Part shown: positions 921-62,617 of the stretch, piece after piece
Layout: each line of letters starts with the position of its first letter
Position numbering within the stretch: the first letter of the stretch is position 1
NCBI GenBank assembly: GCA_963920705.1
Contig: OY987231.1
Coordinates: 5,325,424-5,389,423, forward strand
DNA from: Odiellus spinosus
Taxonomy: Eukaryota; Arthropoda; Arachnida; Opiliones; Phalangiidae
Reading direction: 5' to 3'
Length of the DNA: 64,000 nt
Made by a program: the position numbers and the translations under genes
Notes under the pieces: generated by a model
The model's input: the letters and a program-made list of their open reading frames with translations, nothing else
Told to the model about the DNA's origin: nothing
Database searches by the model: none

Positions 921-1124
921 TTAAGTGCTTTTACGAAACTCAGAATTGGTCAAGATCTTACAATAGTTTAAATAAAATATAATATCATTGGTTTGTTTTC
1001 GCGCGATTAGTATCAAATATTTTTTAAAATATAATTAAAAAAAATAAAAATACAATGCGTGTAAATTTAGATAGAAGCTACGTTCACACAATAGACATTA
1101 ACCGCGAGAAAGCAACCTTATCAC

Positions 1125-1441
1125 CAGAAATAGATGAACCGAAATTATCAACGAGCTATTCCTCTAACGCCACAGGCAAGTTCTCCGTTTCCCCTCTCTT
1201 AGACGACAGTTGTAGCCCCCTCCCCCGCGGAATTTCGCCTAGCCGAGAAACGTTGAATGCGCCACCTGGCTTGGTTTGCAGCCGTCGCTACGTGGGGCGA
1301 TCAGTTTCCCAAGATCCTCCTCGGTATTTCATTGAGGCCGAGGAAGCCCATTCCCCCAGTGCTTACCCTCCCCATTCACTCCAAATAAAATGCATTTCCC
1401 AATCTAAGCTCTCGTTGATAATTTCGGTTTATCTATTTCTG
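1125..1441. mobile_element. CA...TG MITE with 7-bp target duplication
   Basis: 317 bp. The 31-bp inverted ends start CAGAAATAGAT and CCGAAATTATCAACGAG recurs in both, with one mismatch. Flanks are TTATCAC at 1118-1124 and 1442-1448. The empty family A sequence at 4430 and 35800 carries this site once, which confirms the insertion. Probably P-superfamily, non-autonomous. Confidence 0.85.
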
Positions 1442-1600
1442 TTATCACTGGTGTCAGAAATCGCGAGAATCAACTGTAGGCTCTGCAATGGCCACGTGAC
1501 CATAGCGCTATGACGTAGTATTGCGGGGATTGCACTAAAATATGTATGTTTACTATCGCTGTAATTTTTTCTATACTGCATATGTATATTTTAATCGCGA

Positions 1601-2114
1601 GCTAAGCTTAAATTTAATTTTAAAAACAATATTTCAATATGTAGACGTAAAATTATTCTAATTCCTATTTTCCGCTACGAATGTGATTTCGGCTCAAAGG
1701 ACTTTTCAAACGCTACACAGATGGCGCCGTATTCCGCGTTAAAATATTTATCGCTTCGTTTCGTCTTTAAGCCTCGGCACGCGCGAGACTAGGGTTCATT
1801 CTACAGCGGATATTTCACCACCTTGAATAGTTTTGGCAGCTGTTTCTACTTAGTCGTTGAGCGACCATTAGACTGCAGCCATCCCTATCTTTATATACGA
1901 ATTAAATTAGTATAGCCATTAAGCGACGCTCAATAACTCAAACCGTACTCGTTAATTCCCAGACGGACGAGTCCCGCGCGACATATATACGGGCTGCGGG
2001 CTAAAGCCTAGTTCATACATACAATTAAAAGCTAGCTTTCGGTATTCATTTCGATTTCAAGAACTGGTTATCAAACCGATGTAAGAAATCGGTTCGGGAA
2101 ATATTTAGCCCCCT
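1601..2114. other. No gene seen
   Basis: AT-rich sequence with no open frame, splice pair or repeat copy that I recognise. Confidence 0.5.
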
Positions 2115-2319
2115 TCACACTGCGTTTTAGAAAATTCAGAAAGGAACAACATGGGGTCAACTGTAGAGATCCTTTGTCAAAAATTGGAATTAATTGTTTC
2201 AAACTTCGATTTGAACCTCGAGTCGGGAAGCAACTTAACCCCGTACTTACATGGCAGACTTTGAAACCTATTTTATCCGTTTTGAAAAGTTTTGGGGTCA
2301 AACACAGAGATCTTTCGTC

Positions 2320-2350
<31 letters not shown>

Positions 2351-2460
2351 ATTTGCTTGAAAAGTCGATTTGAATATTTCAAAGTTGAAAGTGTGAATGT
2401 AACTTTTTTTTCGAAGTCGCTTCGGTTCAAACAGTTCAAAAGCTTAAAATAACACGATTG
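2115..2460. repeat. Two diverged family F fragments
   Basis: Both contain the ggggtca..cagagatc..tttgtcaaaa core seen in the 7133-7309 element and a cttcacact / gtgtgaatgtaact end. A poly-A run splits the second one. Confidence 0.5.
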
Positions 2461-2576
2461 CAATTTCTGTCAAAATTGCAGAAATTGCAAGTTCTGTAAA
2501 AATTATTACAATTAACTATTTTAACTTTTAATTCGGGGATATTTTTTATAACGACGCTAAACCTTGGCTATGTACT

Positions 2577-2662
2577 AACCAAAACCTTAGCTCTTGACGA
2601 ACCAAAACCTTAGCTCTTGACGAACCAAAACCTTTGCTATGGAGAATCCAAAACCTTGGGAA
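2577..2662 (+). repeat. Short tandem repeat, 23-bp unit
   Basis: Three and a bit copies of a unit like aaccaaaaccttagctcttg; the last copies are diverged. Confidence 0.75.
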
Positions 2663-4204
2663 CTTACTTATCAGCGGTGTGATCGTGGAACTAACTTAGG
2701 GACGGTTCGTGAACAAAAAAAAATCTTTAAAACGTTCGTTTGTAGCCACGAAATACCGATTCAGTTTTCCTAATAGTAGGTATAGCGTTAAGAGCGATTT
2801 GAAATCGATTTGGATAGGCTAGTGTGAACATATCCAAAGTTAGTTTCACGGTGTGAAGCGTGGGAAAATGGAAAACCCTTACGCCAAGTTGGGAAGCGAC
2901 TTCTCAAATATGAACGGGGCTTTGGAGAGTTAAAAGGCACCCCCCCCCCCTTGTCTGTAATTTAGGGATCCCAAAACTTAGGCTTAAATGAAGATAACCT
3001 TATTCGAAACGGCGAAATACCGTATTAAGCGGGATTTATGACTTAGTAACCATGTTTATCCCGTATAGCGGCGTACAGATAGAGTCAAACTATAGTCTTA
3101 TATACAATTCCTATATAACTATAGAGTTTGTAAACTATTCGCTTTAAAATCAACCCCCTTGAGAATAACTCGCCGACGAACCGCCCTGATTCCCTTAAAA
3201 TTAAAGGGCGATTGAAAGACGGACAACGACTAATAATTCTTCGTTATTAAAATAGACTTAAGCCGCGTTCACACACGGGGATTTAAACCTTTTTCAACTC
3301 TTGGTTTTGTTAAGGCGAAATTGTAAAATTTATGGGTCAACTTTAGTAATACTTAATATTACTAAAGTTGATTTGAATCGACTCAAAACTTCGAAAGACA
3401 ATGAAGAGGGAGGGGTTAGCGTAGCCACCGTGATTGAATGCCCGACTTCGTTGGCCTTCGGATATGGAGGAAATGGTGTCGAAAATGATGTGACGTCGGT
3501 AAAAAATATTCCGATATCTAAAAAGGGCTTTAATTGACGAATTAGAAATTTCCATACTCATAAACCAACTTCAGGGGCTACGGCCATTGGGGTACAAATA
3601 TAATAAATTATCACAATAGATGGCGCGCCTCCGCCTCACTCTATCTCTCGCTCTCGTACCTATCCACGTATTACGCCCGTTGCTATGGAGAACGCGACGA
3701 GTCTCCAAGCGCGAGGGGAGAGTTTACCGCGTAGTTTGTCTCTCTCGTCATAGCTTAGCCAATCAGAATAGGATCAGAATGAGAACTACGATAGCGACAT
3801 CTCTTAACACATCGGCGCGTAAAGAGTGTACCCCAGTGGCGCGCTGCCCTTCAAGTTCCTTTTCAATTTAGAATTCGTGTATTTCTAAAAATTGAACGAA
3901 ATTAAACCATTTTAATGTGTTATTTTGTCATAAAAGTAGCCCGGAGTCACTTTCCCTTTAAGATAGAAATCTATTTTTAATATCCTTCTAAAGTAGGCTT
4001 AACGCCGAAATCGAAACCCCCCTCCCCCTTAATTGGAAACGTTTTTCGTAAATTAAACTAGTTTTAAAGACGGTACGCGCGGCTTCCTCGAAATTATCTA
4101 TTTAGGGCGTTTAGAAAGTCGAATTTCTTTCTCTATTATTGGGCACGTTTTTTGAGGTTTGTGTTTTCAAATAAATCAAATAGAAATCTAACCAAACTTG
4201 AAAA
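2663..4204. other. No supported gene
   Basis: Holds a GC-richer block at about 3620-3850 that stays open for 83 codons but has no domain, splice context or codon pattern of a gene. Otherwise AT-rich. Confidence 0.45.
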
Positions 4205-4690: not shown

Positions 4691-5230
4691 TGTGACTTTG
4701 GCCACTTTAATGTTAATTAATCGGAAGAAAATGCTCTTAGTTTTCCCGGACTTCATTCTGCCTTTAATTCTAAGATAAGATCCTTGTTTAAACCTCGAGA
4801 TGGAGTTGTAGGTACCTAGTCTTAAAAAAATGTTTACGTCTTAATACGTCCCAAATTGCGTCATTATAATAGAAAGCTTTGGTTTATTATAATTTAAAAC
4901 AAAGGAAACATGTGCGTAAATGTACGTGACAAAAGGAACGCATTTAAAAGCCTGATCATCAACTGAGTATCGTTAACCACTGTTTTCTCATATAATACAA
5001 AAGCCTATGCGATATTAGTGTTTATATACATATTAAAGGGACTGTAAATCGTCCAGTGAAGCCACTAGATAATTTGGGAAAAAATCGCCCGTCGTTGTCA
5101 TTTACGTCATAACTCCTCGAATGGTAAGCGAATGTAAGAGTTTGACGTCAGGTGACCGCGCAACAAAAAGCTAAAAACATTATTGGAAAATAAGGTATTT
5201 TCCATCGATTTGTAGGAATGTTTATGAAAT

Positions 5231-6030: not shown

Positions 6031-6031
6031 G

Positions 6032-7750: not shown

Positions 7751-9739
7751 ATCGGTATGTGGTCCTAGAAGTTAAGACGTCGGAGTTTTCGCGCGAGAAG
7801 AAGAGAAAACTAATTTCCGTCTCTTAAGAAAAATCCTCCCGGATAAATTTTACTTATTGGAAATCTGCATTTGGTGTAGACTTGACTGTGTACATATTGA
7901 ACAGCCCACCTAGCTAATGCGCATTTTTCGACAGCTATTTCATATTTCCCTCAATACTTAAATGAACCCTATATCTATTTATTTCCCCTCGACACATAGA
8001 GAAAACGTCAACGTCATCGCGCAAAAGAATAATACGGAAATGAGGGAATCGAAGCTTGCCAAATGACTGATACGGATTCTTAAGAATGGCGTTCTGTTCT
8101 TTCCTCCTCTTTAGGATCGCGAGACAAAATCCCTTAAAGCTTTATACATTATACTTCGCCCCCGCTCAATCCTTCGTACGCGATGACTGAAAACAGATGG
8201 GTTCTTTCCAACTCTACCATCGGGAAAAATTCTTATCTGGATTGTGAGCGATTTTTGGAGTTTGCCGAGACTAGCAATTTGGTACGAATTTAAAGAGGAA
8301 TTTATCCTTTTCGCAACTTATTCAATGGCATTGCCCGGGCCAATACTCACGATCAAAGACCTACTTTCGAGGTTCGATTTGTCTATTTGTATAATTTTCT
8401 TTAAATTCCAAGGATAATGAAGTGTCGCGAAAAGTAATTTTTTAAAGGGTGCGAGAACGAGGGCTAAATCCAAAAGGCAACTTGAACGAGAAATGCGCCC
8501 CCTAGCTGCGTAAACTTTAAAAGTTTCAAGGCCTAGTACGAACGCATCTTTCTAGTTTTCTTGTTTTTCCTTCCTCTTTCCTCGAATGCAATTTGAACGG
8601 ATTCGAAACGCTTTGAAAACGGTTTCAAAGTCTCTAGTGTGAACGTAGCTGTAGTAGGGATAATCCAACGCGCCAATTTGATACAGATATCTTACAACAC
8701 TGCGCTATAGAGAAATGCCTTTTTGGGGAAAAGTGACATCTAGAAACGGGGATAATCGGTGGAAATATCCAGAATTCCATATCAAGGTTTTATCACTCTG
8801 ACCATCAATTATCCTCAAAGCTGCTAGCGCCATCTACCAAAATGGGTAATCGGCCACAAATACGTGTTTTCAAGGCTTGTGACCTCAAGTCTCGAGGTGG
8901 GCTGGTGTTGGGAAGAGGCATATCTCTTTTACGCAGCGTTGTAAGATCTCTAATTTTCAGACTAATCACAACCCCCCCCCCCCCAACCTGGGGAAACTAT
9001 ATTCATTCCGGCAAGGAATATGAACCCCCTTCATATTCCTTGATTCCGGCACGATAAAGTGGATCTATATCATTTTTGAATGGCTTTCGCTTAGCTTTTC
9101 TTTGAACTTTATAATTTTTTCTTTCTTTTAGCAATATATATTTTAATGTATAAAAATGTAATTAGTACGCGAGCTTCTTTAACCTCAGTTCTTTTCTATA
9201 CTACAACCATAGAAGCTGGGCGATCTCTCTTTTAGATAAAGGGGTGCATTTCGCTTCGCTAACCGCCTGCGATGAGAAAGGCGACCGGCCGCGAAATCCT
9301 TCTCAGAAGGTATAACTTCTTCTACTGGAAAAATCTAATATTAAAACATTTTTCAGGTACGCGTATATAGTATACACTGGCTAAAGACGTAACGTATTGG
9401 AAAGTCTCGGAAGTATATATTGGAGCGTATTTAGGTTCGCTAGATCGGAAAGGAAGAGTTCCCCTACAGCGAAAACTCGTAGTAGAAATTAGTTTACACC
9501 CCGATGCCTATTCTAGCTATACTCGACTTGTCTTTCGACATTGCAACGCCTCATGGCTTTCTCCGAAGAAGATATATATGAATATGCAAGGAGCGCCTGC
9601 GTATTGGCCTGCAGGGTTTTCCCGATTACACTTTACTCGTACTTGTACGAACAAAGACGATTTGACTACGCGATGTACCCTCGCGCGCCTCAAGAATGAA
9701 TGCAGTTCATAATTCCGAGAAGCTGCGTGTCTATAACAG
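7751..9739. other. Non-coding: one family L element and an F fragment
   Basis: The F fragment is at about 8598-8651 and the L element at 8690-8960. No gene is seen in the rest. Confidence 0.5.
8690..8960. repeat. Family L inverted-repeat element
   Basis: Ends atcttacaacactgcgctat and gcagcgttgtaagat are inverted. The middle matches the copy at 37996-38403. Confidence 0.65.
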
Positions 9740-19300: not shown

Positions 19301-22300
19301 AACACCAAAAACGTGTCTAATAATTGTGAAAGAATTAATTCTCGAATACTTTTTTGGCATGGTGATTCCAAAAATAAAAGATCTCCCAAGTTGCCATTTC
19401 TATCAAGCTTTTGCTTTCGCTTTTCCAAGATAACCTTATACATAGTTTTCAGTAAAGGGGCAAAAGAAAATTCCACCCCTCTTACCCAGCTTTGCTTTCA
19501 TTCCCAGGTTGCCAGGAGCTTGTGAGTGCAGTTCAGAACAGATCAGTTTCAAAACTGAACTCTAGCCTTTCCCTCTGCACTCACAAGTGGCTGGCAACAT
19601 GGGGGGAACGGCACTTACCCCCTTTAGTGAAAACTATGTATAGGGTGGTGACGTCTAATTTGGGACAGTTTTTAAAGTATCGAGTATTGAGGGTGATTGC
19701 TCGCAAATATTTTATTTATCACCTTCTAGATTGAACTTTTGATTGTATTTTAAGACAGTTTTCGTCTTTCTAACCCAATTATTAACTTAGAAAAGGTAAC
19801 TTTGCGAAGGTAGTAATGACGACGAATTCGGGATGTTTGCATTCAATTCGGACCTAGGGGCCCGCAATTCGGACTGAGGAGGTTTTAATTCATAACACTG
19901 GCTATAAAAATGCAAAAAATACTTTTAATAAGGTTTAAAAAATTCAGGTTTTAGGCCTACGACACAAAAATTATCAATAAGCTTTTAATTAGGGTTACCG
20001 GTAATTTATTTTATTTTTAAAATAGTTATAAAATATGTTTAAGATACATATATTTAAATGTTTAAAAGTTAATCGTCACAGCGGTGTTTGCTTAGTTAAG
20101 ATTGCTCTTATTGACCATCACCGTCTAAACTAGAGCAGTCAAAACAATACTTGGCGGTGTTGCAACATACCCAAATTTCTTCATCGTTTTGCGCTCAGTT
20201 TTCTTATTAGAAACATATCCGTTAGCGCTAATTCGCGATTATCAATTTTAACTCGTGAAAGACGTCGATTAACGCCATCACAATTGTGGAAAAATACAAA
20301 ACTAAACCATCTAAATAGGTGCTTAAGTTTTAACTTGAAAGATTTCAACGGTAGAAGCAAACGCTGAGATGTCTCTTCTCTTTTCCCGCCAAAATATCAG
20401 CCCCGTGAATAAGAGAGAGAAAACTCACTTGCCCAACCCAAGGAGGATTAGACAAGGAGAGGAAATGTGGGGCTGCGTTGAGTTAGAGAGAGAAGAGCCA
20501 ACCTCCCACTCGGGTGGAAAGGGGGGATAGGAAATTCTCGAGGTAAACTGTTGTCACGTGGTCGCTAGCTAGCGCGTCTCATAAAGGATTCGTTTTACCC
20601 ACGCGACAACATTTTACCACGAAACGTCTCTACCCCCGTTCTCCCAGAGTGGGAGTTTAGGCCGACGCAGTAGGAGCCGCGCCGTCCCCACATTTCTTCT
20701 CCTTGTCTAATCCTCCTTGCCCAACCTAAGGTAGGAGTAATTTCTCTCATATTTACGGGGCTGATGTTTTGCCGCGAAAATAGAGAAGCGTCTGCTTCTA
20801 CCGTTGAAATCTTTTAAGTTAAAACTTAAACGGCTATTTAGATGGTTTAGTTCCGCAGTTTTCATTAATTTTGATGGCGTTAATCGATGTTTGTAACGAA
20901 TTAAGATTGATAATCGTGGCGTAAACGGCACCGGTTCGAATTAGCTGTAACGGATATGTTTAAAGAAAGTTAGTTGTGAATGAAATATCGTTCCTAAAAT
21001 GATCCGGAAAGTCTCAAATCGTAGCGAAAGAGTTGTGTTATCTTTTGGAATCAGGTCGGTGTCCATACCTTTCCTCAATCTTTGACGAAAGCTTATTTCC
21101 CGAGGTCCAGGGAGCGGCATTCCCTCAAAATTCCAATAATTCAAATGTCGTAATTTGGGTACTCGGCTTTATATTCTCGTATCTCATCGGGAACGCTTCC
21201 TATAATCGTGGGGTTGATTTTAATCGATTCGCGATGAATCAGAGCTTAATTTAAGCCTCTTTTTGGTCTTCTTGAGTTGGGAAAATTAATCATGGGCCTA
21301 TTTAAAAAAAACTGTCTTGAATTGGAAGTGGACCGAGTTAGACGTCACCGCCCTATATAATTCATTAAGATATCGGCTTTTCCATCAATCGAATCATGTT
21401 ATCGTGGGCTAAACGAAGAGCTTGATTTAAGCTTCAACTTTGATTTAACGCTAAAGCTCGATTCTTTATTGAAATCGTGTCTTAATTTGGCACCATTTTC
21501 TAAATTTAAAATAATTATTTGGTCAAACGAAAACATGATTATTTTCAGTCTATATCTTGCTGAAAATTGTTCGCTGTATTTGGGTTATTCTTTAGAGCTG
21601 AAAAAAATGTCGTATATGTTAACGCAATCTCTTACTGACAATTTTTATTTTATTTTATCACAGGGCGACAGTGGTTTCGATCTCTTTACGACAACTAAGG
21701 TAAACTCTGTTATTTTATTCAAACTTTTATTACGTCGAATATAATATATTAATCTAAGCTATATATTAATCTAAGTATGCGAAAGTATAGAAATCGCTCT
21801 TCGACTTACCCTTATTGTTTCCAAACATACGCGTCATATTTCGCCCCAATTACCCTTTATTCTTTTGTTTCTTATAACGGATCGAGTAAACAAAAAAACC
21901 CTTGCTAAAAATATTTATAGTGTGTTGTTACAAAATGGTAAAATGTTTTCAGGGTGTTAAACGTTCCATCACGCGTCTTCACGGAGGAACGTTAGGTTAC
22001 GCGGAGGTCATCGCTATTAAGGTAAAGATAAAAGCCCTTTTTGGATGACCTTTCATTCTTCGTTCAACCCTATGATTACCGAATCAAAACCCTTTTAACC
22101 AATTAAACCGCGCGTTTCGTTAATGGTGGTACGATATAGCGACGCGTTTGCAATTACAAATTTCAAAAAATATAGTCGCTCAAATAAAGCTACGTTCACA
22201 CTTGACACTTTGAAACCATTATCCAACACTTTTTATGGATCAAATCGACTATTCAAGAGACTACTTCTAATTATTGATGAAAGATTTAACGGGAAACCAC

Positions 22301-25300
22301 GAAATTTTATTATTTCACCATGCCAAACCGGTTTAAATAAGTTTCAAAGTCTCTAGTGTGAACACGGCGTAATTGAGTTCAGTACAAGCGCGGGACCGCG
22401 ACTTTATTTAATTTCGGGAAGGTCTAATTTAACTCGCGATCACATATCAGTTCAGTTCGGAACTGTTATTTTACAATGTTTATATAAATACTTGGAAGGA
22501 ATATGTTTAAATTCTGTCCCTCTCTCCCGATTCAAAATATCGAGGAAGAGTCCAAACCACTCGAGCCAGACAGGGGTGATGACTTTTTGCTATTTCCAAG
22601 TGATGGACCATGATGTAAAACTGTACTTTTACTGATAGTATTAAGCTACGGGGAGTTGTTAACTTTTATGGAATGAAGTGATGGACTTTTGATACCAAGA
22701 ATTCACATACGGGGAAACAGGAATATTTCGCGGAAAATGTTTTCATTTATATAAACAAACCGAATAAGTCTGGAAATGAAATTTAGTGTATTCAAGATTA
22801 TTTACATATTAAACAATGGCTAAACCTCGACTAAACGATTGAAAAGCATCCCTGCCAAAAACAAATACAAACATAAATATGAATATGGAAAGAACGATGG
22901 TTCTACTCGTGTTGTAAAACCTTTAAATACTCCAATTCCTCTTGAATAGTAAAGTGTAGGAAAAATTATTTACTCCTCGCTAATACATCACTTTGAAAGA
23001 TAATAGCTATGCCTACAGCTCAATGGATCGTTGTGGTACAGCATTCATTCACCGCTTCGATAATCATCGTTGCTTAGGGCTTGATTTAGGTGTACCAAGA
23101 TTAATTTGGGTAGTATCAAGAACTCATTCATGAACCTGGAAGCAAAGATATTCTAAAGCCATCCTCTCATACTTGACTTTTATTTCGTAAAAGATTTATA
23201 TAAAAAAGAATACAATAAAACTGTATAGAAAGAGCTATTTAAGAAGGAGGTGCAGAATCTGTTACAGGGACGCACCCATTGCAGGTTGAATTTTAGACAG
23301 AACGTTTAATCTTAAAGGAGGCGGCGGTCTATTGAGGGGTGGCAGAGCTCCATCTACAGTTTTTTTTTAATTTCCTCTCAGCTATATTATTACCTAGTAT
23401 GACGACGGAGTGGAGCTCATTGGAGATATTTTCTCTGTAGGAAATTTTGAAATTCGTCTATTGTCTAAAAACAACGAGGCATATCTAAGGGAATTAGCTT
23501 TAGGAGAAAATTGAAACTCCAGAGTACACATTTTATCATTTTTAGATATCAGTGAAAGTCACTCAATAGCAGACGAGTTTTGGCTACAAAATACCCGAGC
23601 ATGGTACTAAGTTCTAATGTACTTGAATGAGTTCTTGCTTCTACTAATATGGGGAAATGTCGCTTTATCGTAGCGAAAAAATGGACTTCTCGAGCCTCGT
23701 TACTTATACTATGCAGTCCCTAGCTTTGTGGCCTACATTCTGATACGTCAAAATACCCTTGTAATGCAATAGTATCGATTGATCTATTGGCTTGATGGTG
23801 TTAATAAAGTTGAGCCGCTTAAACCGTATTGTCATTGCATTTCCGTCAATTCCGTAACATATCAATCTTTTTTATTATTCCTATAAAAATAAATAACCCT
23901 TTTTGTGCTATTATTCAATAATTAAATAACCACGAATACGCTAAACTTCAGTTTTAGTATTCTGTTCTTTTATCTAAATCATAATCCCCGTTTCCTTGAA
24001 TGTGAATTTATTTCGTATTGAAATGGATCTAAGGCAGCCTTTCTATTTAGTTCCGTCGCGATTCCATAAGCGCAATTAAACCGAAATTCTTACACTTCAT
24101 ATAATTCATACTTGGACATAATGAGTTTATTCTTATATTCGGTTTTAATTTTTCTTCTAAACTGGGCTCCCGTTTCCTTGAATGTGAATTTATTTGGTAT
24201 TGAAATGGATCTAAGGCAGTCTTTCTATTTAGCTACGTCGCGAGTCCGTAAGCCTTATTAAGCCGAATTTCTTATACTCTACGGTTTATCCACGCCGAAT
24301 TATTCATACCTGGACATAATTAATACTCGGTTTTAATTTTGTCTTGTAAACTGGGTTTCGGATTAACTTTCTTAGTCGTATTTAAATATATCTGCCACCA
24401 TTCTCGACGCGCGAAATATTAATTTTCCGTTTTAATATTATTTCTCCCTATTAATCCTATTAACTCAAAAACGTTAACTATACATGTTGTCCAAGCACAG
24501 ACCCGTTGTTATTACGAGCGATTGAATTTTCGTTGTTTTTTTAATTATTATTTCTTCCACGGTGTGGTAATTATACTAACCGGGCCGTGTAATATTTTAC
24601 TCGTAAAATGTTGTTTTTTATAACCGTACTAATTGATATTTTCACCAATTTCCCTAATCCTTTCGTGTTATATTTACTCGCCTAAGGACGAACAACCAAC
24701 GGTGCGATTTTATTATATTCTAAATTTTAATACGTTATCGAGTACAAGTTTTGATACTATTAGTTTAAAAGAACATTATTTTGCCAGCCGCCTTATTGAA
24801 CGGCGGAAAGTACCGGGGTCATTCCACGAAAATTAGACTATAAAATTGAACCCCTAATTTATTTTGACAGTATTACTACTATCAAATATTGATACCCTTT
24901 TAAATCGAGGCTGTCACCATTCGGATGCCTAGATGGATTAAGATTAAATTAAAAACTTGAGTATATTATCGTAGAAAGAAAGCGAGGTTTCTTTTTTAGA
25001 ATAACAATCGAAAGAAGGATTAAAATTGTACTTAACTCACTTGCCAACCTTTATGATATCAGAAGCCGATGAAACCCTCCTTTGAAGTCTACTACTCCAA
25101 TGTTCCATATAGCGCTCCTCTCTGTATGGGTAAAATTCACAATTTTACGAGTTAGAAGGGGTCCTACTTCATCCCCCCTGTCTACGGAAAATTTGAAATT
25201 CTCTCTCTCCACAAACGACGACGTTTTTGGACGAACTCCAAGGCTGCTAGATATATTCGCTCGACGAACTCCCGCTCCGAAAACATCTACCGTTAGGAGG

Positions 25301-28300
25301 CGTACGAATCGCGCCTTTTGAGAATAACCCATACAGAGAGGGGTAGACAAGACCCGGGAGTAATAGACTTCAAAGGAGGGTTTCATCGGCTTCTGATGAT
25401 ATATTTAGCATCATCGGTCATTATGATAGTAAGATCAAATGGCCCTGCAAATGGAAAATTTGTTTCAACAGTTTTGTACTTCTAATTGATTCGCTTGAAT
25501 GTAGCGTCAGAAGCGTACGAGAATCGAAGTACTCGGCCTTGCCTATGAATAATGGAACCTCTACTTTTAACGAGGCCATGATACTTTTAACTAGACCGTA
25601 TGATATTAATTTCAATGCCAGGGTTCTTATAGCGTCCCTTACATCGAATTCGAATCACTCTAGAATGGGTAACGACCATATATTTTATAATTCTAATAAG
25701 TACTAATTATTCGTGGAATGACTCGTGTCCTCTAGCAATTTTTTAGCTTGGAATTTAACAAATTCGAATTAAAATTGAACAAAAACTCGTTTTTGTCTTA
25801 AGGGAAACTTGGAGCTACAAATGGAACAGCTTTTTAATTTATTTTCGGAATCACCGAGAATTTCAAACAGTTATTAGACACGTTTTTGGTGTTTAAATTA
25901 ATTTATAAAGTTCGTTTAATTTTGAATGTAAGTAAATATGAATTAGGGCCAATCATATTCCTTCAATAGCGCTTGTAATGTCCTAACATTAAAAGAATAG
26001 GCCGGGGTTTGATGTCTAAGATCTTGGCCATCAAACCCCGGCCTATTCTTTTAATATTAGGACATTACAAGCTCTGTTGAAGGTTGAAATAATATGATTG
26101 ACCAATTTTTACTTACATTCAAACTAGTTACCAAACTTTGCAAATTAATTTAAACAACAAAAACGTGTCTAAAAATAGTTTTGAAAATTCTCAAAAGCTG
26201 TTCCATTTTTAGCTCCAAGTCTCCCTTTAATTTCATAAAAGTGTTAAAATATATTTCAATTGTAAATATTATTTTAATCCTTTTCCAAAGTTAAATTTCA
26301 AACTAAATTATCTATCAAAATAAAATTTTCAAAAATAATTGAAATTTAGACGAATTTAATTACGCGCAATTTTAGTTTTTTCCGTTTTATGTGTCTATGT
26401 TTAACAAAAGGGGTCTCCATACTTTTACATTTGGCGAACGTGTCTATATAGAAACCAAATCAATCTGCAGGAAAATCCAATATCCAAACGAGATTTGTTA
26501 CGCTTAGCTACGATATCGAACGTGTGGAGACTCCCGTTAATATAAATGTAACAGATACGAATACGTTAAAGCCCAGACACCACTATTTCTTACTTAAAGT
26601 TAGAATAAATGAGATTACGCTGCTATTTTATTATAGGATTTGAAAATTCCCTGTAATGAAGCCACGCACTTTCGTGATAATGACGCGTTTTCAAAAAGGA
26701 GCCTGCCTAGTTAATTAGTAGATAATTTGTGATGTTTAAATTCGAGCGTAGTTTTTTAGCTCGGGTTCAAGAGCTTTAATTGACTCTTTGATGGAGTAAG
26801 TCGTGCCAAAAGCATCCCCTAACTTCTCTTTAAAGTTTATAGGGAGAATGCAACCTAAAAACAAGTGATTTCTATCTATTCCATATCGCTTAAATAGATC
26901 TAATCCACCAGTAAATGAATTTACAAACAAATATTAGACTAGAAATAAATTTAAAACTTACCCGGAAAACAGGCTTATCTGGATTCATGGAGATCCTGAA
27001 TTTCTTCGCATTGCTGGGTCAGCGACCAATGAGCAAAGACCCTTCGTTAAGGTGAGACTTGCAATAACATTCGATTGGTCGATGATCCTTCATTGCGAAG
27101 AAATTCAGAATCTCCAACAATCCAGCTAAGCCTATTTTTCGGGTAATTTTTAAATTCATTTCTACTTTAATATTTGTTTGTAAAATCTCCCGGTGGACTA
27201 GGCCTACCTTAACGATAAGGATTCGATAAAAAATCACTCTGTGTTTGGCTACATTATCCCTTTAATATTTATCGAGGCTTACTCTAAAGTAAGCCGCTTG
27301 TCAAAGTCAGAATTTGTATTTTTGGTAATTGGCGTGTCAAGCGAGTCGTTAGAAGTAGAAAGCTTTAAAGCGACTCGTTAAGGAAAGGACATATATTAAA
27401 GGGTGACACCCGGCTAAATAAAAAAGATTTTGTCCTTAAAGGGAGAATGCAACCTAACAAGTGAATTTTTTATCGATTCCTGAACGTTTAAATAGGACTT
27501 ATTCATGGTTAGTTAAATAATTACAAACAAATATTAAACCAGAAAATTTACTAGGAAAATAGGCTTAGCTGGATTCATGGATATCCTGAACTACCCATAT
27601 AAAGGCCGTTGATCAATGTCATTGGTCGATAGCTCTTATATGGGGAATGCAGGCTCTCCATGAATCTTGCTAAGCCTATTTTGCCGGGTAAGTTTTAAAT
27701 TTATTTCTAGTTTATTTTATTTTTTGTAATTTTTTTACTGGTGGATTGGGCCTATATTTAACGATAAGGAATCGATAAAATATCCCTTGTTGTTAGGTTG
27801 TTTATTTAAAAGTTACAACTTTAATTACGCTATAAATTGCGTAATTAAAGTTTTAACATTTAAATTAAGTATTAAATGCCGTAAATTATTCGATGAATCT
27901 AAAGTAATCTATTTATCCTTTTACTTTTGGGCTTTTTCGTATCACGTCTCAATAATCGTTAAACGTGTTGTATGTCATGTTCGTGTCCTTTCGTTGTTAG
28001 TGGCGGTCTTAACCGACCGAATTATGTCATTGGAAACCCTTACTAACTCTCCTTAATTCTTTAAAACCCAAACCCGTCAAATCTTTTTAAACCTTATTCC
28101 ATTCTCGCCCTTCTTCGTGTTTTTCTTTTTTTTTCTTTTTTTTTTTTTCTTGTTTTTTTCGGTTCTGTTCCTTCTATTTATTTTGAAAACCAAATCCCGT
28201 TGGGTTGCGGTTTCTACCGTTGTTTGTGTCCTCGATCGCTCAGGGTCTGCAAAGTTTGGGAATAACCCTGTCCCCCGGAGATTTGCTCTTACTCAAAGTA

Positions 28301-34300: not shown

Positions 34301-37300
34301 GTCTGATTTACTCTAGAAAGAATATACTGGGCTTGGTCGCCTTTCTGTACAAATTTCGGAATACTCAGGGCGAAACCATGAACTGAGAAAATCGGACTCG
34401 CTTCATCGTCAACCGCAGTATGTCGTCTTATAAACTTGAAGAATGATTTACTTGTGTTAATACAAGTATATTCCTTATTGATAATATCGAATTTTTTCGT
34501 GATAACAGTTAATTGACGACTTTCATTTCAACATAATCGAAAATGGTTATTTTTTATCGCAACTGGGGTACAATTATTGTCACTTAATGAGGTTTTTTAT
34601 TTAAATTTTGCACCACCTCATCACTTTTATCCAAACGCCGATACCTTTATTCCTAACAATACAAGTTGATTGAAAATAATTGCGTTTCAAAGTCGATTAT
34701 AGCGTGAAATAATTCGACCTTATCACTAGGTATTGCTGAATTATTTCAAATAAATAAACCATTTTTGTGAGCGGCTAATAATTTCGTTAGCTCATCTAGA
34801 AATCAATTTTGGTTTTAATTTCTATTATATTTTTGTTTAATACAACATTGTTTTCGTCTAGGGTCCTCCGGGAGAACACGGACCTCCTGGACCTCAAGGC
34901 CCTGTTGTAAGTACTCGCCGCTGGCTCAAACATTTATCAAAATATTAACGATTACGCCTAATATCTTTTACGATGTTTGTGTATTTCTAGGGACCAATGG
35001 GAAAAGATGGACTTCAAGGACCCAAGGTAAAATATTTTCGCTTAACTTATAACTTAAGGTGAAAAACCAAATATCAAAATTCAAACGAGTAAGTTTGTTT
35101 TAAAGCCAACTTCGGTTATTTCTAGAGTTAAATTGAGGCTGTCAACATTTTATTAGATTATTTTTAGTTTTATCATACTATTAAAACGGTATATGCTCTT
35201 TCGACCGAATTCCCATATGAACGAAATCCCATTCGGCCGAATAGCTGCAATTTCTAGCCCATTGGGCTGGGAAAAAGGTTTCTTCCCATTCGACCGAATG
35301 GGCTAATAAATTCAAAAATTTAATTCAATCGAATAGAAGCATACGCATAATTATATATGTAATACGTTGAATGGAACTTTTGTTAAGCTACGTTCTTCGT
35401 ACGTAAACGGTAGTAAAAAAAAGTACAATAATGCAGTTTTAAATAATATTTATTTGAAAGGTTAGGTTAGGTTAGGTTAGGTTAGATTATACCTTGGAAA
35501 TACCCCAAAAATTTCAAAAACCGCCAAAGCGCGGGTTTTTCGGTCGAATGGGATTGGGTTCGGTCGAATGGGAATTCGGTCGAAAGGACCCAAAGCATTA
35601 AAACGCCATATTCATAATTTTATACCTCTGCCAGTTTGCGCGATCTTTAGAAACTTTTATATGAAAATGTCAAAGATATATACCTATATGACGTAGTTTA
35701 TTTCTGGAAGGTATTCTGGAAGGTACACGCTAATTTCGGTACGTAAGGCTAGACTTGATCTGGATTAAGTACTTATGCGAAAAAAAACGGTTGAAAGCCA
35801 CCTTATCACTATTGCTAGAACGCGCGAGAATCAACTGTAGGCTCTACAATAGCGAAACCACGCGACCTTATTGATGACGTATTATTTCTGGGAATTTTTA
35901 TTTTAAAAATGGCAATTATAAAATATGTATTTTTACTATCGTGGTAATTTTTTCCGTGACATATTGGTATATATTTTGAATCGTTTTTCAACTATCTTTC
36001 CGAAAACACTACTCAATTTTCATTTGGGGCTCGTGAAAATTCGTGACAGCCTCACTTTAATAGCGAATGATTTAGTATAAGCAAGAATCCATTCAGGTTC
36101 CATAAGAATATGGGAGGGCCGCGATTCAATAACCATCCTCCCAAACTTAGTAGCAAAAGTTCGTCTGCTTCGAATCGATTTTTCAAGTAAATCGCTCCCG
36201 ACATTATATTATTAATCCGCGCCACTAACGACCTTGGGTAATAAAAATGGAGCCGACCGAAAAAAGATCTAAGCGTACAAATGTTGCGAAAATTGCAGAC
36301 GAACTTTTGTTACAAAGTTTGGGAGGATGGTACCAAAGGCTAAAGCTATACTCCCATATTCTTATGGAACCTGAATGGATTCTTGGTATAAGGGTCATGG
36401 TTAAGATAAATACGAAGTAAAATTAATATCCAAAGGAAGATGAGAGCATCAAGTTTTTGAAATAAATTATTTTGTTATTTTTTCGTAAATCTTCCGAGGC
36501 GATCTAAATAGGTTATATTTTTGAAATTAGATTAACTGACCAAACTTTGATAATTAAAACTAGTTTAATTTTTAGCACTAAGTTTGCGAATTTAATTTAA
36601 AAAAATTGCCCGAGCTGTTTTTACATAAAAGTTTATTTAAAAAGATTGATATAGAACGAAATGGGCTTACGAAATGAGGAAAAAAATTTCAAATTTGGCC
36701 AGAAAAGGTCCAAATTAGAAAACTAACGTAATTCGACCAAATAGACCAAATGAAATAACTTGAAATTCAACAAAAGTGGAAGAATGACATTTTACATTTT
36801 GGTTTAATTGAGATTTTTTTTAAATAGGTCTTTTTTTGGTCGATCCAAAACTCCAATACGGACCATATTTGACCTAGAGAGGTCGGGGTTTGGAAAAGAT
36901 AATCCTGCACAAATATTTGCTCAATAATATTAAGTTAAATATTTCGATTCCATTGGATTTATCATAGACTTCCCGTAGATAATTTCAAATTACGAATAAA
37001 GATAAAATAAACAGAAATATCTTGTTCAAACCCCAACCTCTAAATTGACCAAATTCGAAGTATTTTCCTTGAAAGCTTACGTTTGGATTTATGGAATTAT
37101 ATTTAAGTGTATAAAGAAATCCACCACTAAACATAGTTATTTTAGTTTTTATAAAAAAAGATTATAAACGAGACATTGGGAGTTTTTTCTCGAGAAATGA
37201 TGTACACACTATAAAGCTTTTCTATAAAGGTTGTCGGATATTTCGCGCCATTTGTAAAGATTTAAGAATACTTCGTAACGATGCCCTTAGCGAAATTTGT

Positions 37301-55000: not shown

Positions 55001-58000
55001 GTTGAATTATTACGGGAACCAGATTACAATGACTTTTTTTTTTCATAACATTGTTAAATTAATTAACGAGACTGGCACTAAGTTAAGAATTGATTTGATT
55101 GGAAAGTAAGTAGTGAAAGCATTACAGAAACGTTTATAAAATAACTACCATGAAGTAGGTCAACAAAATTAGTTTAAACAGTTTTTTTTTAATCAAAGCG
55201 CCACCTCGTGACAAAACCAGATTTTTAATAGCCTTTAACATAGAATGACGTGTGTTATGAGAAACCAACGAAATATACTGGGCAGATTTAAACGTTTTCT
55301 CAAACTAAAAGGCAGAATGTGAACGTAACGGTAAATGGGCTGAACCTATTTATTCTATTTAAATTTAAAATTCATGATTCTAAATTGGGGAATATATACA
55401 ATTTAATTTGAAAAAAACCGAAATTTTTGACGTTAACTTTATTCCAAAATGAAAAAAACGAAACGGGAAAATTTATTTATTCGTAAAAAAAACAACGTAT
55501 ATTTCGAACCAACAAAAATGGCAGTATTATTTTATAAAAAATATAAAAATATTGTTCTAATAAATAAAACGGTTACTAATTAGTTTTATAAAAATATTTT
55601 GTAGAGATAAATAATTAATTTAAAGATGAGGAGTAAGATTTAAAAAAATACTATAATAAAAATCCTCTAAATAATAGGTTAAAGTGACGTAATAGGGAAA
55701 AAAACTATAAAAGTTCGAACTTTCCTAAATAAGTTTAAGAAAAAATATCGCGAAACCTGATTATTAATTAACATATCCTCTCTGTCCATAAAAAAATAAT
55801 AGTTAGTGGTATTAACATTTAATGTTAATTAAAATCGTCTTCGTAAATGTATAGTTAAAAGAATTTTTGGTACCGCTCTAAAGATAATACGTGTGGAGAA
55901 ACAAAAAAAAAATTGTATAAAAAATGCCTGAGGTGGTTTTTTTTGGTGAAAGCAATTTACTACTTATTGAAAAAATTCGAACTATATTATTATAATTATT
56001 ATAAGGGTTCTAGGCCTAATTATTTTTTTATATTTCCGCTAGACGCTTTCCTTAGAACGCTTTCTTTTTTCGCATTCTCTCGATGTTATTGAAACACATT
56101 CAGTTTGTATATCGCATGGAAATCCCTATCGTAACGTTAGTCAAGATTAGAGTAATTTTAATATTTAAATCTCTTTAGGGACCACCCGGCTTGGACGGTA
56201 TGAAGGTAATTAGAATATTATATACCATTTATAATTAATTTTTTTAATATTATAGACACTTGAGTTTAAAATTCACCGAGAGCCAAACTAAATTTCTAGC
56301 GTAGGGAGACGGCGAGGGGTAACAGCCTCGAAACGTTGGTGTCATAGGATAGATTCATAAATTGCCATAAGCGGATTATTTTAAATAATCCGCCTATGAA
56401 ATTGCGTATAGAGAATCGTGCGTGAAGGAACACGCAGTCCATCTTGCGCGGTAAGAATAGAAATGTGAACGCTCAACTCCAGGTGGCGCTAGGAGCCCTT
56501 TAGTGTCTGCTAAACTACTGATTTATGGCGCCAGCTGCTGTAGTTACCTGTTCAACGTGTCTATTTTTATTCAAGATGGACGACGTGCCCAATCATGCTT
56601 AAATTGGCATGCCCGAAGGGGGAAGCCGCTCATCTTGTGTAAGAGTAGAAATGTCTACAGGATACTCCATGTGGAGTTAGGTACCCTGTAGCTTCTGCCT
56701 TAGGACACCACCTGCTGAAATTACCTTTTTGAAATTACAATTCTTACCACGCAAGATGGAGCTAGGCGTGCCCCTTACATTCATGTTCTCCTGTGTGAAT
56801 TTATGAATCTCCCTACAGGCTATTGACTCGTGGTTGTCTTTCGTTTCCCCGTGGACATTCGCTGGCTCCCTATTAAAGGGTTATGGCTAATTTTCAAGGA
56901 AAAATATTTCCGCCAGAGAAAACTTTTTTTTTTTGCTGCCAAAACATTGATGAGATAGCTCCTACACCGATGAAAGGTTTTTTCACTAGGCACTAGGATT
57001 CCGCCTAGTGAAAACTAGCCTTAACAACAGGCGAATTGTTTCTTTAAAAGTGATCTGGCTGGTAAAATTCCCATGATTTGTATATCGAGTTCCCACCTTA
57101 AAGTGGTCAAACACTTAAAATTAAAAATACTGGTTACAAAGTGACTGTGAAAGGCGAGAGAACAAATTAGTTTAAATCGGTTGAAAAATCGTATTTTATA
57201 TGCTTCATTATCTCTTTAAAGTAATTGATTGGGTCTTAATTTCCAACGAACATGGTATTTACTATTTAAAACGAGTGTTTACCACGTTTGAATAAATTTT
57301 AAAGGTAATATCGATATTAATATTTTTGAAAGAAACTAAAATTTTCCGAAACAATTCGTCTTTGCTTGGAGAAATTAAAGAGGATATTACCGACTGACCG
57401 TTTAAAAGTAGAGACACCTGAAGGTAGTCACCCCAGAGACAAAAACATATTCGGGCCATTGCCAATTGACTAGTTTACCACCAATTTCGGTACTGCTCAA
57501 CAGTCTTTCGGTGGTTTTTCGGCTTTGAAAATTTAATTTCAAAATTTTAATATATTCGCGTCAAAGTCAGGTTTTTTTTCATCAAAATTTTATTTTAAAA
57601 TGGATTTTTTACAATTAATGGTTAATGGTTAGAAAAAACTGAGCAAAAAGTTCAAAAGAGACTGGCTAGTTTTTGTAGCGTTACTGAGGTAGCTACTTTT
57701 ATAATATCAAGCGAATTTTTAGGAGGCATGTAATTTCAAAAGCTGCGTTCATACTAGGCCTTGGAATCAATTTAAACCGTTTTGAAACGTTTCGCTAGAG
57801 TCGTGTGAACGGGAAACTGTCATTTCACAAATCGAATTGATTCGATTTCTCGAAACTGCTTCGGGAACCAGTTTTGTACCGATTCGGTTTGAACAACCGA
57901 TAGATGAAGCTACAAGAAAACGATTTATAAAGATAATGCTTGGATAAGTGACGCTTAAAACGGTTCCTGGCGATTTGAATATCGGCTGGATTTTAGTTTC

Positions 58001-60471: not shown

Positions 60472-60896
60472 CTTCGGCGTAACCAATTAAGAACCAGGAC
60501 TCTTAAAAATGGATGGTATTTTCACTGCCAAAAGGTTCGTAACTCCAAAAACCTTTTTTTTTTTTTTTTAATTAAAATGAAAAATTAATACATAACAATT
60601 TGAAATTTGGCAACCAATTGCTCCAGTTTGCACCACGTCCCTAAAATCACTGATAAGAATATTTAATTATTTTAAAATTCCGCTTAAATTAAGAGATTTT
60701 TAATGAGCCATTCTAAAACCCGAGTGTGTCTCATTATTGCGTCTTTTTCGTCATATCGAGTTTAGTAAAGAGATAGGTTAAGCAGATCTCTGCCAAGCCA
60801 CATGATCATATGATCCTAATTTTTTCAAAATTTATCCCTTAATTCCTACTTTTGTCAAATGAAATTCAAATGAATACAGTTGTAAAGGGGAATAAA
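60472..60896 (+). terminator. 3' UTR and poly(A) signal of the collagen gene
   Basis: The first AATAAA after the stop is at 60891-60896, about 420 nt downstream. An ATTAAA variant lies just after the T-run near 60570. No coding signal follows. Confidence 0.5.
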
Positions 60897-61391
60897 AAAT
60901 TCTGCTGGCTTCGGTTTATTGTTTGCGAACGCGCTGAAAGTTTCTACTCCAACTTATTGTAACCCTACTATACCGCGTTGTGCCCATGGTCGTGACGAGT
61001 GGCAATTCTAAATGGGTCTCCTTGAAGTCCATACTTTTCTAATTCGTGGTTAGAAAATCTAATATATCAACCTAGGAAGATTAAGGGGATCTTCTTAGAT
61101 TCAACCATGGGCAAAGTAACGTGATACCAGGACATGACTTTTCTAAAAAATCTTCCAACTATCTGTAACACTCGTCTACTATCGCCCCTTTTGAAAAAAG
61201 CACGAAATTCGGAATACGTCATTTAAGGTACAAATATAAAGGTCACGTGATATTTTTTATAATTTTTAAACCTTCGTCTGCTGGTCCTGGTTTCTCAATT
61301 TTTGTACCCAATTTTTTCCCTCCCCCTATCATTTCACCCCCCCCCCCTAAAATCATCACGAGCGTCGCACGTTACAACTAGTGCCTGTCTG

Positions 61392-61629
61392 CAGGGACGG
61401 AAATAAGGAATTTTTCTTATTGGACAAATGTCCAGTAACCCCCCTTAAAAATTCAAAAGTTATCGGACATTTAACAAAATTACCGGACAATGCTACATTT
61501 CTTGTATTGAAAAGAACTTTTTTTTATCGGACATTTGTCCAGTGACCCCCTCTTAAAAATAAAAAGTTATCGGACATTTGGAAAATTTATCGGACAATGA
61601 CCAGTGACTTGTGCTTATTTCCGTCCCTG
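61392..61629. mobile_element. hAT-type MITE M1, 8-bp duplication
   Basis: 238 bp. Ends CAGGGACGGAAATAAG / CTTATTTCCGTCCCTG. CCTGTCTG flanks it at 61384-61391 and 61630-61637. The inner text ggacatttgtccagtgaccccc repeats within it. Confidence 0.9.
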
Positions 61630-61661
61630 CCTGTCTGGGTTTGTACGTACGAAGGTGCGGC

Positions 61662-61942
61662 CAAGGAGGATCAGAAAAGGAGAGGAAATGTGGGGACGGC
61701 GCGGTTCCTACTGCGTCGGCCTAAACTCCCACTCTGGGAGAACGGGGGTAGAGACGTTTCGTGGTAAAATGTTGTCGCGTGGGTAAAACGAATCCTTTAT
61801 GAGACGCGCTAGCTAGCGACCACGTGACAACAGTTTACCTCGAGAATTTCCTATCCCCCCTTTCCACCCGAGTGGGAGGTTGGCTCTTCTCTCTCTAACT
61901 CAACGCAGCCCCACATTTCCTCTCCTTCTCTGATCCTCCTTG
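61662..61942. mobile_element. CA...TG MITE family K, copy 2, 7-bp duplication
   Basis: 281 bp, inverted relative to 20439-20719, with about six differences, mostly in the end repeats. GTGCGGC flanks it at 61655-61661 and 61943-61949. Confidence 0.92.
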
Positions 61943-61990
61943 GTGCGGCTGTTATGTCCTGGTATCACGTTACTTAGCCCATGATTCAAC

Positions 61991-62610
61991 CATGGATATA
62001 TAAAGAACTAACGTTCATGGATATTGCACTCGTACCTTCTGTAAGGCATTTTCAGCAGATCGCGAGTTCGGATAATATCGTCCGCTAGCGACGGCGGAAG
62101 TGGGGCTCTTTTTGGGAAATTTTTGCGAAACGGATTTCCTGTTTACAAATTGTCGTCTGCACGTTCTGCAGTTTTTCATTTTCAAATGTGACGTAATGGT
62201 ACACTTCCTGTCTAACGACAAACATCGTTACTAGATGGCGCCAGTGAACATGGCTCATTCTGTTCCAGGCTGGGAAATAAGGATAATTTTTAAACTGGAC
62301 TTATGGCCAGTAGAGCCCAAGCGGTTTAATTAAAAAACTGGACATTGGCCAGTTACAATTTTCACGAGCTTGACAATCTGAAATTATGACGTAGGACTAT
62401 GAAGTAGGCTAAGAAACAGAACTAAATTTTGGAATTAATTAACTGGCCATGTGGCCAGTAGACCCCCAAGCATTTAATTTTTAAACTGGCCCAGCTAATT
62501 TTTAAACTGGACTTTTGTCCAGTAAAACCGCCTTATTTCCCAGCCTGTTCTGTTCACGCGTTTTTCTCGGAGTGCAATATCCATGAACGTTAGTTCTTTA
62601 TACATCCATG
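61991..62610. mobile_element. CA...TG MITE O2, 7-bp duplication, invaded
   Basis: Inverted ends of about 41 bp start CATGGAT and contain TATAAAGAACTAACGTTCAT, with one mismatch. ATTCAAC flanks it at 61984-61990 and 62611-62617; the left copy is shared with O1. It holds a hAT MITE (62266-62547). Confidence 0.9.
62266..62547. mobile_element. hAT-type MITE M2, 8-bp duplication
   Basis: 282 bp. Ends CAGGCTGGGAAATAAGG / CCTTATTTCCCAGCCTG. TTCTGTTC flanks it at 62258-62265 and 62548-62555. It is related to M1 by the gg(g/a)aataagg ends and the tggac..tggccagt repeats. Confidence 0.9.
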
Positions 62611-62617
62611 ATTCAAC

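What the first reader, a model, noticed from the sequence alone, without database searches (positions are those of the whole stretch)
1118..62617. A shared 7-bp-duplication, CA...TG signature across six unrelated MITE families
Seven insertions (1125-1441, 20439-20719, 25060-25395, 36082-36385, 61106-61983, 61662-61942, 61991-62610) have inverted ends that start with CA and exact 7-bp flanking duplications (TTATCAC, CCCAACC, ATGATAT, GTATAAG, ATTCAAC, GTGCGGC, ATTCAAC). Their interiors and most of their end sequences are unrelated. Few superfamilies make 7-bp duplications; ProtoP and Galileo of the P superfamily do. This suggests that one kind of transposase has mobilised a diverse swarm in this genome.
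Basis: partly seen in the sequence, partly recalled or inferred. Interest (0 to 1): 0.75.

Follow-up and report, generated by a model that had tools for sequence, protein, structure and literature searches.

The report
P-type miniature transposons with excision scars
This genome carries several families of tiny jumping DNA elements that duplicate exactly seven bases when they land and seem to leave a hairpin-like scar when they leave, which points to enzymes of the P-element kind, although the enzyme gene that moves them was not found.

Summary
All seven elements (six families) have CA...TG inverted ends and exact 7-bp duplications at the stated coordinates. Of 100 copies read from the genome, 96 had exactly 7 bp, 1 was ambiguous and 3 had no exact duplication. 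The families share a palindromic target preference, RTNNNAY. In a scan of 308 kb, all 14 elements with 7-bp duplications had CA...TG ends.

New evidence favours P-superfamily transposition. The genome holds collapsed 20-44 bp hairpins: two 7-bp duplications enclosing 9-16 bases (family A) or 10-23 bases (family D) of each end. Two hairpins of other families lie in the window. They have the anatomy of Drosophila P-excision junctions, which follow a 17-nt staggered cut (PMC2895639). The ends weakly resemble this genome's own P element, and P-type transposases are present.

Against a single enzyme: the genome's canonical P element makes 8-bp duplications, and A and D scars differ in retained length. 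No transposase gene bounded by these ends was found; one candidate was refuted.

Verdict: a swarm of 7-bp P-type MITEs, like 1360/ProtoP and Galileo, autonomous partner missing.

The parts
1125..1441 (.). MITE family A, 317 bp, TIR CAGAAATAGATGAACCGAAATTATCAACGAG (one mismatch at the right end of the window copy); TSD TTATCAC at 1118-1124 and 1442-1448
   Evidence: 30 of 30 copies read have an exact 7-bp TSD
20439..20719 (.). MITE family B, 281 bp, TIR CAAGGAGGATTAGACAAGGAG; TSD CCCAACC
   Evidence: 29 of 30 copies exactly 7 bp, 1 ambiguous (7 or 12)
25060..25395 (.). MITE family C, 336 bp, TIR CAGAAGCCGATGAAACCCTCC; TSD ATGATAT
   Evidence: 9 of 10 copies read 7 bp
36082..36385 (.). MITE family D, 304 bp, TIR CAAGAATCCATTCAGGTTCCATAAG; TSD GTATAAG
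   Evidence: 9 of 10 copies read 7 bp
61106..61983 (.). MITE family E (344 bp plus nested hAT-like and B insertions); TSD ATTCAAC
   Evidence: 10 of 10 copies read 7 bp; nesting arithmetic fits the 345-346-bp copies
61662..61942 (.). second copy of MITE family B, nested in E; TSD GTGCGGC
61991..62610 (.). MITE family F (330 bp plus nested hAT-like element), next to E and sharing the duplicated ATTCAAC
   Evidence: 9 of 10 copies read 7 bp
61392..61629 (.). nested element CAGGGACGGAAATAAG.., 8-bp TSD CCTGTCTG; called hAT-like from ends and TSD only (internal contrast)
62266..62547 (.). nested element CAGGCTGGGAAATAAG.., 8-bp TSD TTCTGTTC; called hAT-like from ends and TSD only (internal contrast)
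9012..9042 (.). 31-bp excision-scar-like hairpin CAAGGAATATGAACCCC/CTTCATATTCCTTG flanked by ATTCCGG
56366..56398 (.). 33-bp excision-scar-like hairpin CATAAGCGGATTATTT.. flanked by AAATTGC

Best explanation
These are non-autonomous elements of P-superfamily cut-and-paste transposons of the 7-bp kind (like 1360/ProtoP and Galileo). The transposase is inferred to bind the terminal inverted repeats, to cut the transferred strand exactly at the CA/TG ends and the other strand roughly 16-23 bases inside the element. The element joins into a palindromic RTNNNAY target with a 7-bp stagger, giving 7-bp duplications. The donor site keeps single-stranded tails of end sequence, which end joining closes, often at 2-base microhomologies such as AT or TA; this leaves the short hairpin scars. 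Several related transposase lineages, not one enzyme, have probably mobilised successive families (by copy identity, E oldest; A and B most recent). Shown: ends, duplications, target motif, scar-like hairpins, and P-type transposases in the genome. Inferred: that the hairpins are excision scars, the cut positions, the end-joining route, and that P-type enzymes of this genome move these families.
For: 7-bp duplications in 96 of 100 copies across six families. Shared palindromic target, T at TSD position 2 in 75 of 97 sites and A at position 6 in 76 of 97, in the pattern of 1360 GTTNAAC (PMC3276498 passages) and Galileo GTANTAC (PMC4168063 passages). De novo scan: 14 of 14 TIR+7-bp-TSD elements are CA..TG, against 7 of 34 at 8 bp, 1 of 36 at 6 bp and 1 of 139 at 5 bp. 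Scars: family A, 17 of 21 tabulated sites kept, 10 with exact 7-bp TSD, 2 with one mismatch, 1 without, 4 with one flank seen; family D, 9 sites, 5 exact, 2 with one mismatch, 2 with one flank. De novo hairpins in 326 kb: 6 of 9 at 7 bp are CA..TG, lengths 31, 31, 33, 36, 40, 63; at most 1 CA..TG at each other length tested, and 0 CA..TG in ten Markov simulations, which gave 1-6 hairpins with other ends each at 7 bp. The P element's 17-nt cut is described as atypical (PMC7776569 passages), and its repair junctions have this anatomy, with AT the commonest short microhomology (PMC2895639 passages). The six families' ends match the genome's own P end at 6.83 of 14 positions, reached by 0 of 5000 shuffles; five ends of elements with 8-bp TSDs score 3-5. 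P-type transposases with THAP, RNase H and GTP-binding domains are present.
Against: No transposase gene bounded by any of these ends was found. The best candidate (L124) proved to be a family A fragment of about 24 bases, apparently inside an intron of an unrelated gene family. The one P element whose ends could be read makes 8-bp duplications (three copies). Family D scars keep up to 23 bases, more than the 17 known for P. The ends of four other P-type loci (L116-L119) were not found in the 6.5-7.0 kb read for each, nor A-F ends in the 3.1-3.2 kb read around eight PF12017 hits. The target motif does not separate P from hAT (hobo GTNCGNAC), and a paper on Ds, a hAT element, draws one insertion with a 7-bp duplicated target (PMC1978519 passages). 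The Drosophila P end matched none of the compared ends at 9 or more of 16 bases.
Confidence: 0.82

Rival explanations
1. A hAT-type transposase with a 7-bp stagger moves these MITEs. hAT elements also often start with CA and prefer a T...A palindromic target.
For: Target motif compatible with hAT (hobo GTNCGNAC or NTNNNNAN). hAT-like MITEs lie nested in E and F. A Ds insertion with a 7-bp duplicated target is drawn in PMC1978519 (passages). Recalled: some hAT groups have 5- or 6-bp duplications.
Against: The hAT-like elements in the same sequence have 8 bp. Ds excision goes through flank hairpins with cleavage at the nucleotide next to the element (PMC1978519 passages), which would not leave 9-23 bases of both ends. 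Five ends with 8-bp TSDs do not resemble the P end.
Confidence: 0.08
2. A different, undescribed transposase superfamily with a long offset cut and a 7-bp stagger moves these elements.
For: No transposase with these ends was found. Family D scars exceed 17 nt. L121, a 742-bp A copy, carries an ORF remnant without a Pfam match above a curated cut-off.
Against: The tested hallmarks fit the P superfamily, including in-register similarity to the genome's P end.
Confidence: 0.08
3. The hairpins are not excision products but deletions of MITEs by replication slippage or hairpin cleavage; the superfamily would then rest on duplication length, target and ends alone. (Not exclusive of the best explanation.)
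For: The 2-base microhomologies (AT) are also direct repeats on one strand, so slippage could make the 20-bp scars, the commonest A class (7 of 17).
Against: Filler bases occur at several junctions. Five of six de novo CA..TG hairpins are 31-40 bp although 18-160 was allowed.
Confidence: 0.12
4. Chance coincidence of short direct repeats around unrelated inverted repeats.
For: None.
Against: 96 of 100 copies at different places carry exact 7-bp repeats; ten simulations gave no CA..TG hairpins with 7-bp flanks.
Confidence: 0.001

Closest known systems
1360/ProtoP (Hoppel) of Drosophila, P superfamily
   Same: 7-bp duplication, modal in 98.21% of 279 sites, with target GTTNAAC (PMC3276498 passages)
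   Different: Here many MITE families and no autonomous partner found; a 1360 transposase or end was not compared directly
Galileo, P superfamily
   Same: 7-bp duplications (a few of 8) with consensus GTANTAC/GTATTAC (PMC4168063 passages)
   Different: Galileo has long Foldback-like inverted repeats; these MITEs have short TIRs
P-MITEs of Anopheles gambiae
   Same: Several MITE families tied to P elements in one genome; master TIRs of 27-31 bp (PMC1562414 passages)
   Different: Those have 8-bp duplications and share subterminal sequence with identified autonomous P elements; here 7 bp and no master
Drosophila P-element excision junctions
   Same: Many keep both duplications and up to 17 bases of each end, with AT/TA microhomology joins or filler (PMC2895639 tables in passages)
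   Different: 8-bp duplication; those are laboratory excisions in repair-mutant flies, these are fossil; family D keeps up to 23 bases
Canonical P element of this same genome
   Same: CA..TG ends with weak in-register similarity to the MITE ends
   Different: 8-bp duplications GTTATAAC, AATAAATA, TTTAAAAC

Membership tests
P superfamily | 7- or 8-bp target site duplication, fixed length | tested here: met
   96 of 100 copies exactly 7 bp, 1 ambiguous, 3 without
P superfamily | short terminal inverted repeats beginning CA | tested here: met
   Drosophila P, Pdre2 and this genome's P also begin CAT
P superfamily | palindromic GT..AC-type target motif | tested here: met
   RTNNNAY; not exclusive, since hobo (hAT) is similar
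P superfamily | long staggered cut (17 nt in Drosophila P) leaving end remnants at the donor site | tested here: inconclusive
   indirect, from scar-like hairpins: A up to 16 bases per end (fits), D up to 23 (exceeds 17); no cut was observed
P superfamily | THAP plus TNP-like RNase H/GTP-binding transposase encoded by an element with the same ends | tested here: inconclusive
   such transposases are present, but the ends of the P-type loci read were unresolved or were the 8-bp P ends; no link to A-F ends
hAT superfamily | 8-bp duplication (5-8 recalled) | tested here: not met
   7 bp in A-F; neighbouring hAT-like elements have 8; one Ds case with 7 bp is drawn in PMC1978519
hAT superfamily | excision footprints without long end remnants | tested here: not met
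   hairpins keep 9-23 bases of each end, if they are excision scars; hAT mechanism from PMC1978519 passages
hAT superfamily | hAT transposase with the same ends | not tested
   the 12 genome searches went to one P-type family, DNA queries, patterns and one protein
Dada superfamily (6-7 bp, recalled) | insertion into multicopy RNA genes (recalled) | not tested
   flanks of A-F copies were not screened for RNA genes

The most novel reading that the evidence does not exclude
P-superfamily transposases in this genome form several lineages that share a 7-bp integration stagger but differ in how far inside the element they cut the second strand (about 16 bases in family A, at least 20-23 in family D), and the short TSD-flanked hairpins, possibly thousands by crude extrapolation, are a readable fossil record of those cuts. 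Excision offset would then be an evolvable, family-specific trait that can be read from genome sequence without the transposase.
Probability: 0.35. Interest if true: 0.68.

Novelty: new member of a known kind. Interest (0 to 1): 0.52.

Why it matters
MITEs are often assigned to a superfamily by duplication length and ends when no autonomous copy is found. TSD-bounded hairpin scars would give an independent, mechanism-level signature of a P-type cut that needs no transposase. If the family-specific cut-offs hold, natural scars would show how the unusual long stagger of P transposases varies; the only measured value in what I read is the 17 nt of Drosophila P (PMC7776569 passages). The swarm also shows 7-bp P-type elements in families of very different age within one genome, beyond the Drosophila cases read here.

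Tried and rejected
Canonical P element as the mover: its ends differ and its duplications are 8 bp in the three copies where both sides were read.

Long family A element with a gene (L124/L126): rejected. A homologous locus (L127) has the same exon-like coding end and splice-donor-like sequence and runs into the same following sequence without the A end, so the A piece is a fragment of about 24 bases in another gene family.

L117: the family F ends beside its P-type transposase do not bound the gene. One pair is a 40-bp F-type hairpin with CTTGAGC on both sides.

L116-L119: no convincing CA..TG ends with 7- or 8-bp duplications in the 6.5-7.0 kb read for each.

Other A ends without A interior: L120 (C8 group) shows no convincing partner end within 4.5 kb; L123, L124 and L125 none within 0.8 kb; L122 is a 193-bp A-like copy (two TSD mismatches); L121 is a 742-bp copy (one TSD mismatch).

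Rows dropped before counts: one search listed 100 of 143 rows; 63 of these 100, belonging to a CCCGGG-flanked palindromic repeat, were not typed into. Of the 21 A sites typed there, 4 matched the TIR for fewer than 11 bases on both sides and were dropped. In the D counts one site with a base change inside the ends counts as 12 bases per side although the palindrome goes on. Searches left out the window's own loci L009 and L039, the short loci L069-L108, and L120 onwards; one search also masked the central A and B copies of the other loci. Many of the 34 8-bp hits are tandem-repeat cases.

Cautions: I compared the ends with the genome's P end after noticing the likeness, and the shuffle control does not correct for that choice. 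For E the end of the genomic copies was used, not that of the window copy, and 4 of the 13 ends come from hairpins alone or with only partial parents.

Full report
What was checked. All seven reported elements have the stated inverted CA...TG ends and the stated exact 7-bp flanking repeats. They form six families: A (1125), B (20439 and 61662), C (25060), D (36082), E (61106) and F (61991).

Copies in the genome. The searches gave 364, 637, 1285, 1756, 51 and 211 first-look candidates for A to F, with 40 scored in each. All 40 scored copies of A and of B are printed at 100% identity, so these bursts look recent; apart from the window's own copy, the scored E copies are 80-82% identical to the E query. 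I read 100 copies: 30 A, 30 B and 10 each of C-F, from the high-scoring rows; two are the window's own. The duplication was exactly 7 bp in 96, ambiguous (7 or 12) in one B copy inside a CTAAC tract, and absent in three, one of them with a single mismatch. None of the 100 gave 8 or 9 bp.

Target preference. In 97 sites the second base of the duplication is T in 75 and the sixth is A in 76; the first is A or G in 68 and the seventh C or T in 73. The same pattern is seen in each family, though less strongly in B. It fits Galileo GTANTAC (PMC4168063, passages) and 1360 GTTNAAC (PMC3276498, passages). It is not exclusive: hobo, a hAT element, has GTNCGNAC in the same table.

Unbiased scan. In 308,358 bases held (window plus fetched loci, with the central A and B copies masked), a search for inverted ends matching at 12 or more of 14 bases with exact flanking repeats gave 14 hits at 7 bp, all 14 with CA...TG ends. 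At 8 bp 7 of 34 were CA...TG, at 6 bp 1 of 36, at 5 bp 1 of 139 and at 4 bp 3 of 181; many of the other-ended 8-bp hits are tandem-repeat cases. Seven of the 14 are the window's. The other seven are C, F and B-like copies and new ends (L021, L034, L056). Five of the seven CA...TG hits at 8 bp have CAG..GGAAATAAG ends, two of them nested in E and F. I call these hAT-like from ends and duplication only. After subtracting the insertions and their duplications, E is 344 and F 330 bp, close to their genomic copies (345-346 and 330-331).

Excision scars. A pattern search for A ends not followed by A interior sequence returned 27 places, several of them collapsed hairpins. A dedicated search listed 100 of 143 rows, 63 of which belong to an unrelated palindromic repeat. 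Of the 21 A sites that I tabulated, 17 matched the A end for at least 11 bases on one side; 10 have exact 7-bp duplications, 2 have one mismatch, 1 has none, and 4 show only one flank. Family D gave 9 sites: 5 exact, 2 with one mismatch, 2 with one flank. In D, 9 of 18 ends keep 17-23 bases (Fisher p = 1.3e-5); by site, 0 of 17 A sites and 7 of 9 D sites have an end of 17 or more. The two ends of a site are not independent, and the D limit may be censored by the search gap. The commonest A scar (7 of 17) joins the two ends at AT; D scars join at AT, TA or CC.

De novo scars. Independently of any family, hairpins of 18-160 bp with 9-base arms and exact 7-bp flanks number 9 in 326,087 bases. Six are CA...TG, with lengths 31, 31, 33, 36, 40 and 63, two of them in the window (9012-9042 and 56366-56398). 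At the other duplication lengths tested (5, 6, 8, 9, 10) there are 0, 1, 1, 0 and 0 CA...TG cases. Ten third-order Markov simulations gave no CA...TG case at 7 or 8 bp; they gave 1-6 hairpins with other ends each at 7 bp. One hairpin, L117:6158-6197, has family F ends. Two others have parent-like ends in other held loci. If the held sequence were typical, five hairpins of 31-40 bp in 326 kb would mean several thousand in the genome; the loci were not drawn at random, so this is only an order of magnitude.

Why the scars point to P. Drosophila P transposase cuts 17 bases inside the element on one strand, described as unusual (PMC7776569, passages). Many repair junctions in flies keep both duplications and up to 17 bases of each end, and join at AT or TA or with filler; others are joined at longer microhomologies and keep less (PMC2895639, tables seen in passages). 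Ds footprints are explained by flank hairpins with cleavage at the nucleotide next to the element (PMC1978519, passages; the same paper draws one Ds insertion with a 7-bp duplicated target, so duplication length alone would not exclude hAT). The hairpins here are of the first kind.

Ends. Ends of 13 families or hairpins that I compiled share a weak in-register pattern, roughly CANRRRYNNATRAA; their mean pairwise identity over positions 3-16 (4.87 against 3.84) was not reached in 5000 shuffles, and that of the six window families (5.67) in 6 of 5000. The six window families match this genome's own P end at 6.83 of 14 positions (0 of 5000 shuffles) and all 13 at 6.08 (2 of 5000), but single scores run from 3 to 10; five ends of elements with 8-bp duplications score 3-5. 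I made this comparison after noticing the likeness. The Drosophila P end matched none of them at 9 or more of 16.

Transposases. Pfam PF12017 gives 68 matches in the genome. L116 has a single 929-aa frame with THAP, HTH, RNase H and GTP-binding domains; L117 and L118 are further P-type loci. A family that I call canonical P (full copy about C4:15756685-15761111, with deleted relatives) has ends CATAGATATATGAAAAATAAGC and 8-bp duplications GTTATAAC, AATAAATA and TTTAAAAC. The ends of the other P-type loci were not found in the sequence read. No gene bounded by A-F ends was found. A promising case (L124) was rejected when its homologue showed that the A end is a small fragment in another gene family. 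L121 is a 742-bp A copy, with an ORF remnant lacking a Pfam match above cut-off.

Judgement. The most likely mechanism is P-superfamily cut-and-paste transposition with a 7-bp stagger, by several related enzymes over time. P-MITEs are known (Anopheles, 8 bp; PMC1562414, passages), and 7-bp P-type elements are known (1360, Galileo). This is therefore a new member of a known kind. In three literature searches for 7-bp P-type MITEs and for genome-wide scars I saw, in the listings only, no paper on a multi-family 7-bp P-MITE swarm or on natural scars used as evidence of the cut. The boldest reading is that the cut offset differs between families and can be read from the scars.

Noticed in passing
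window 61106-62617: E and F lie side by side sharing the duplicated target ATTCAAC, so one probably inserted into the duplication made by the other; another F copy (L100) sits directly after F-type end sequence with the last 7 bases of that end as its duplication.
   Followed up: partly
window 61392-61629 and 62266-62547: Two nested hAT-like MITEs with similar CAGG..AAATAAG ends and exact 8-bp duplications.
   Followed up: yes
L124/L126 (C1:2456293-2457115) and about 20 other loci: A divergent gene family of unknown function, apparently multi-exon (31-81% identity to the query), with no Pfam match for the two pieces tested and no convincing solved-structure match.
   Followed up: partly
C2:21939831-21941556, C4:3021591-3023406, C4:3195504-3197319, C15:12604205-12605933 and C15:16012656-16014384: Recurrent 36-38-bp palindromes CAGAAATAGAC/CC..CTATTTCTG within CCCGGG, many spaced about 133 bp apart; they start like the A end, but the flanks are not a 7-bp duplication.
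   Followed up: no
L006, L007, L008, L118, L119: A second multi-copy P-type transposase family with an inverted repeat of about 580-620 bp close to the gene; L008 also carries a tandem array of about 25-bp units.
   Followed up: partly
L034:210-1846: A 7-bp-TSD element (ATTATAC) with a perfect 24-base inverted repeat that hosts a nested family A copy; about 1.3 kb without it.
   Followed up: partly
L056:2844-2879: A 36-bp CA..TG hairpin flanked by an 8-bp repeat (GTCACCGC), possibly a scar of an 8-bp P-type family; a similar end lies in L054.
   Followed up: no
L111:508, L112:550, L113:559 and the same place in L114: About 115-120 bases inside the left end of deleted canonical P copies lies CAAGAAGGATCAGACAC, which shares its first 14 bases with the end of a B-like element (L060:1819, CAAGAAGGATCAGATAAGG); possibly chance, possibly a shared binding site.
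   Followed up: no
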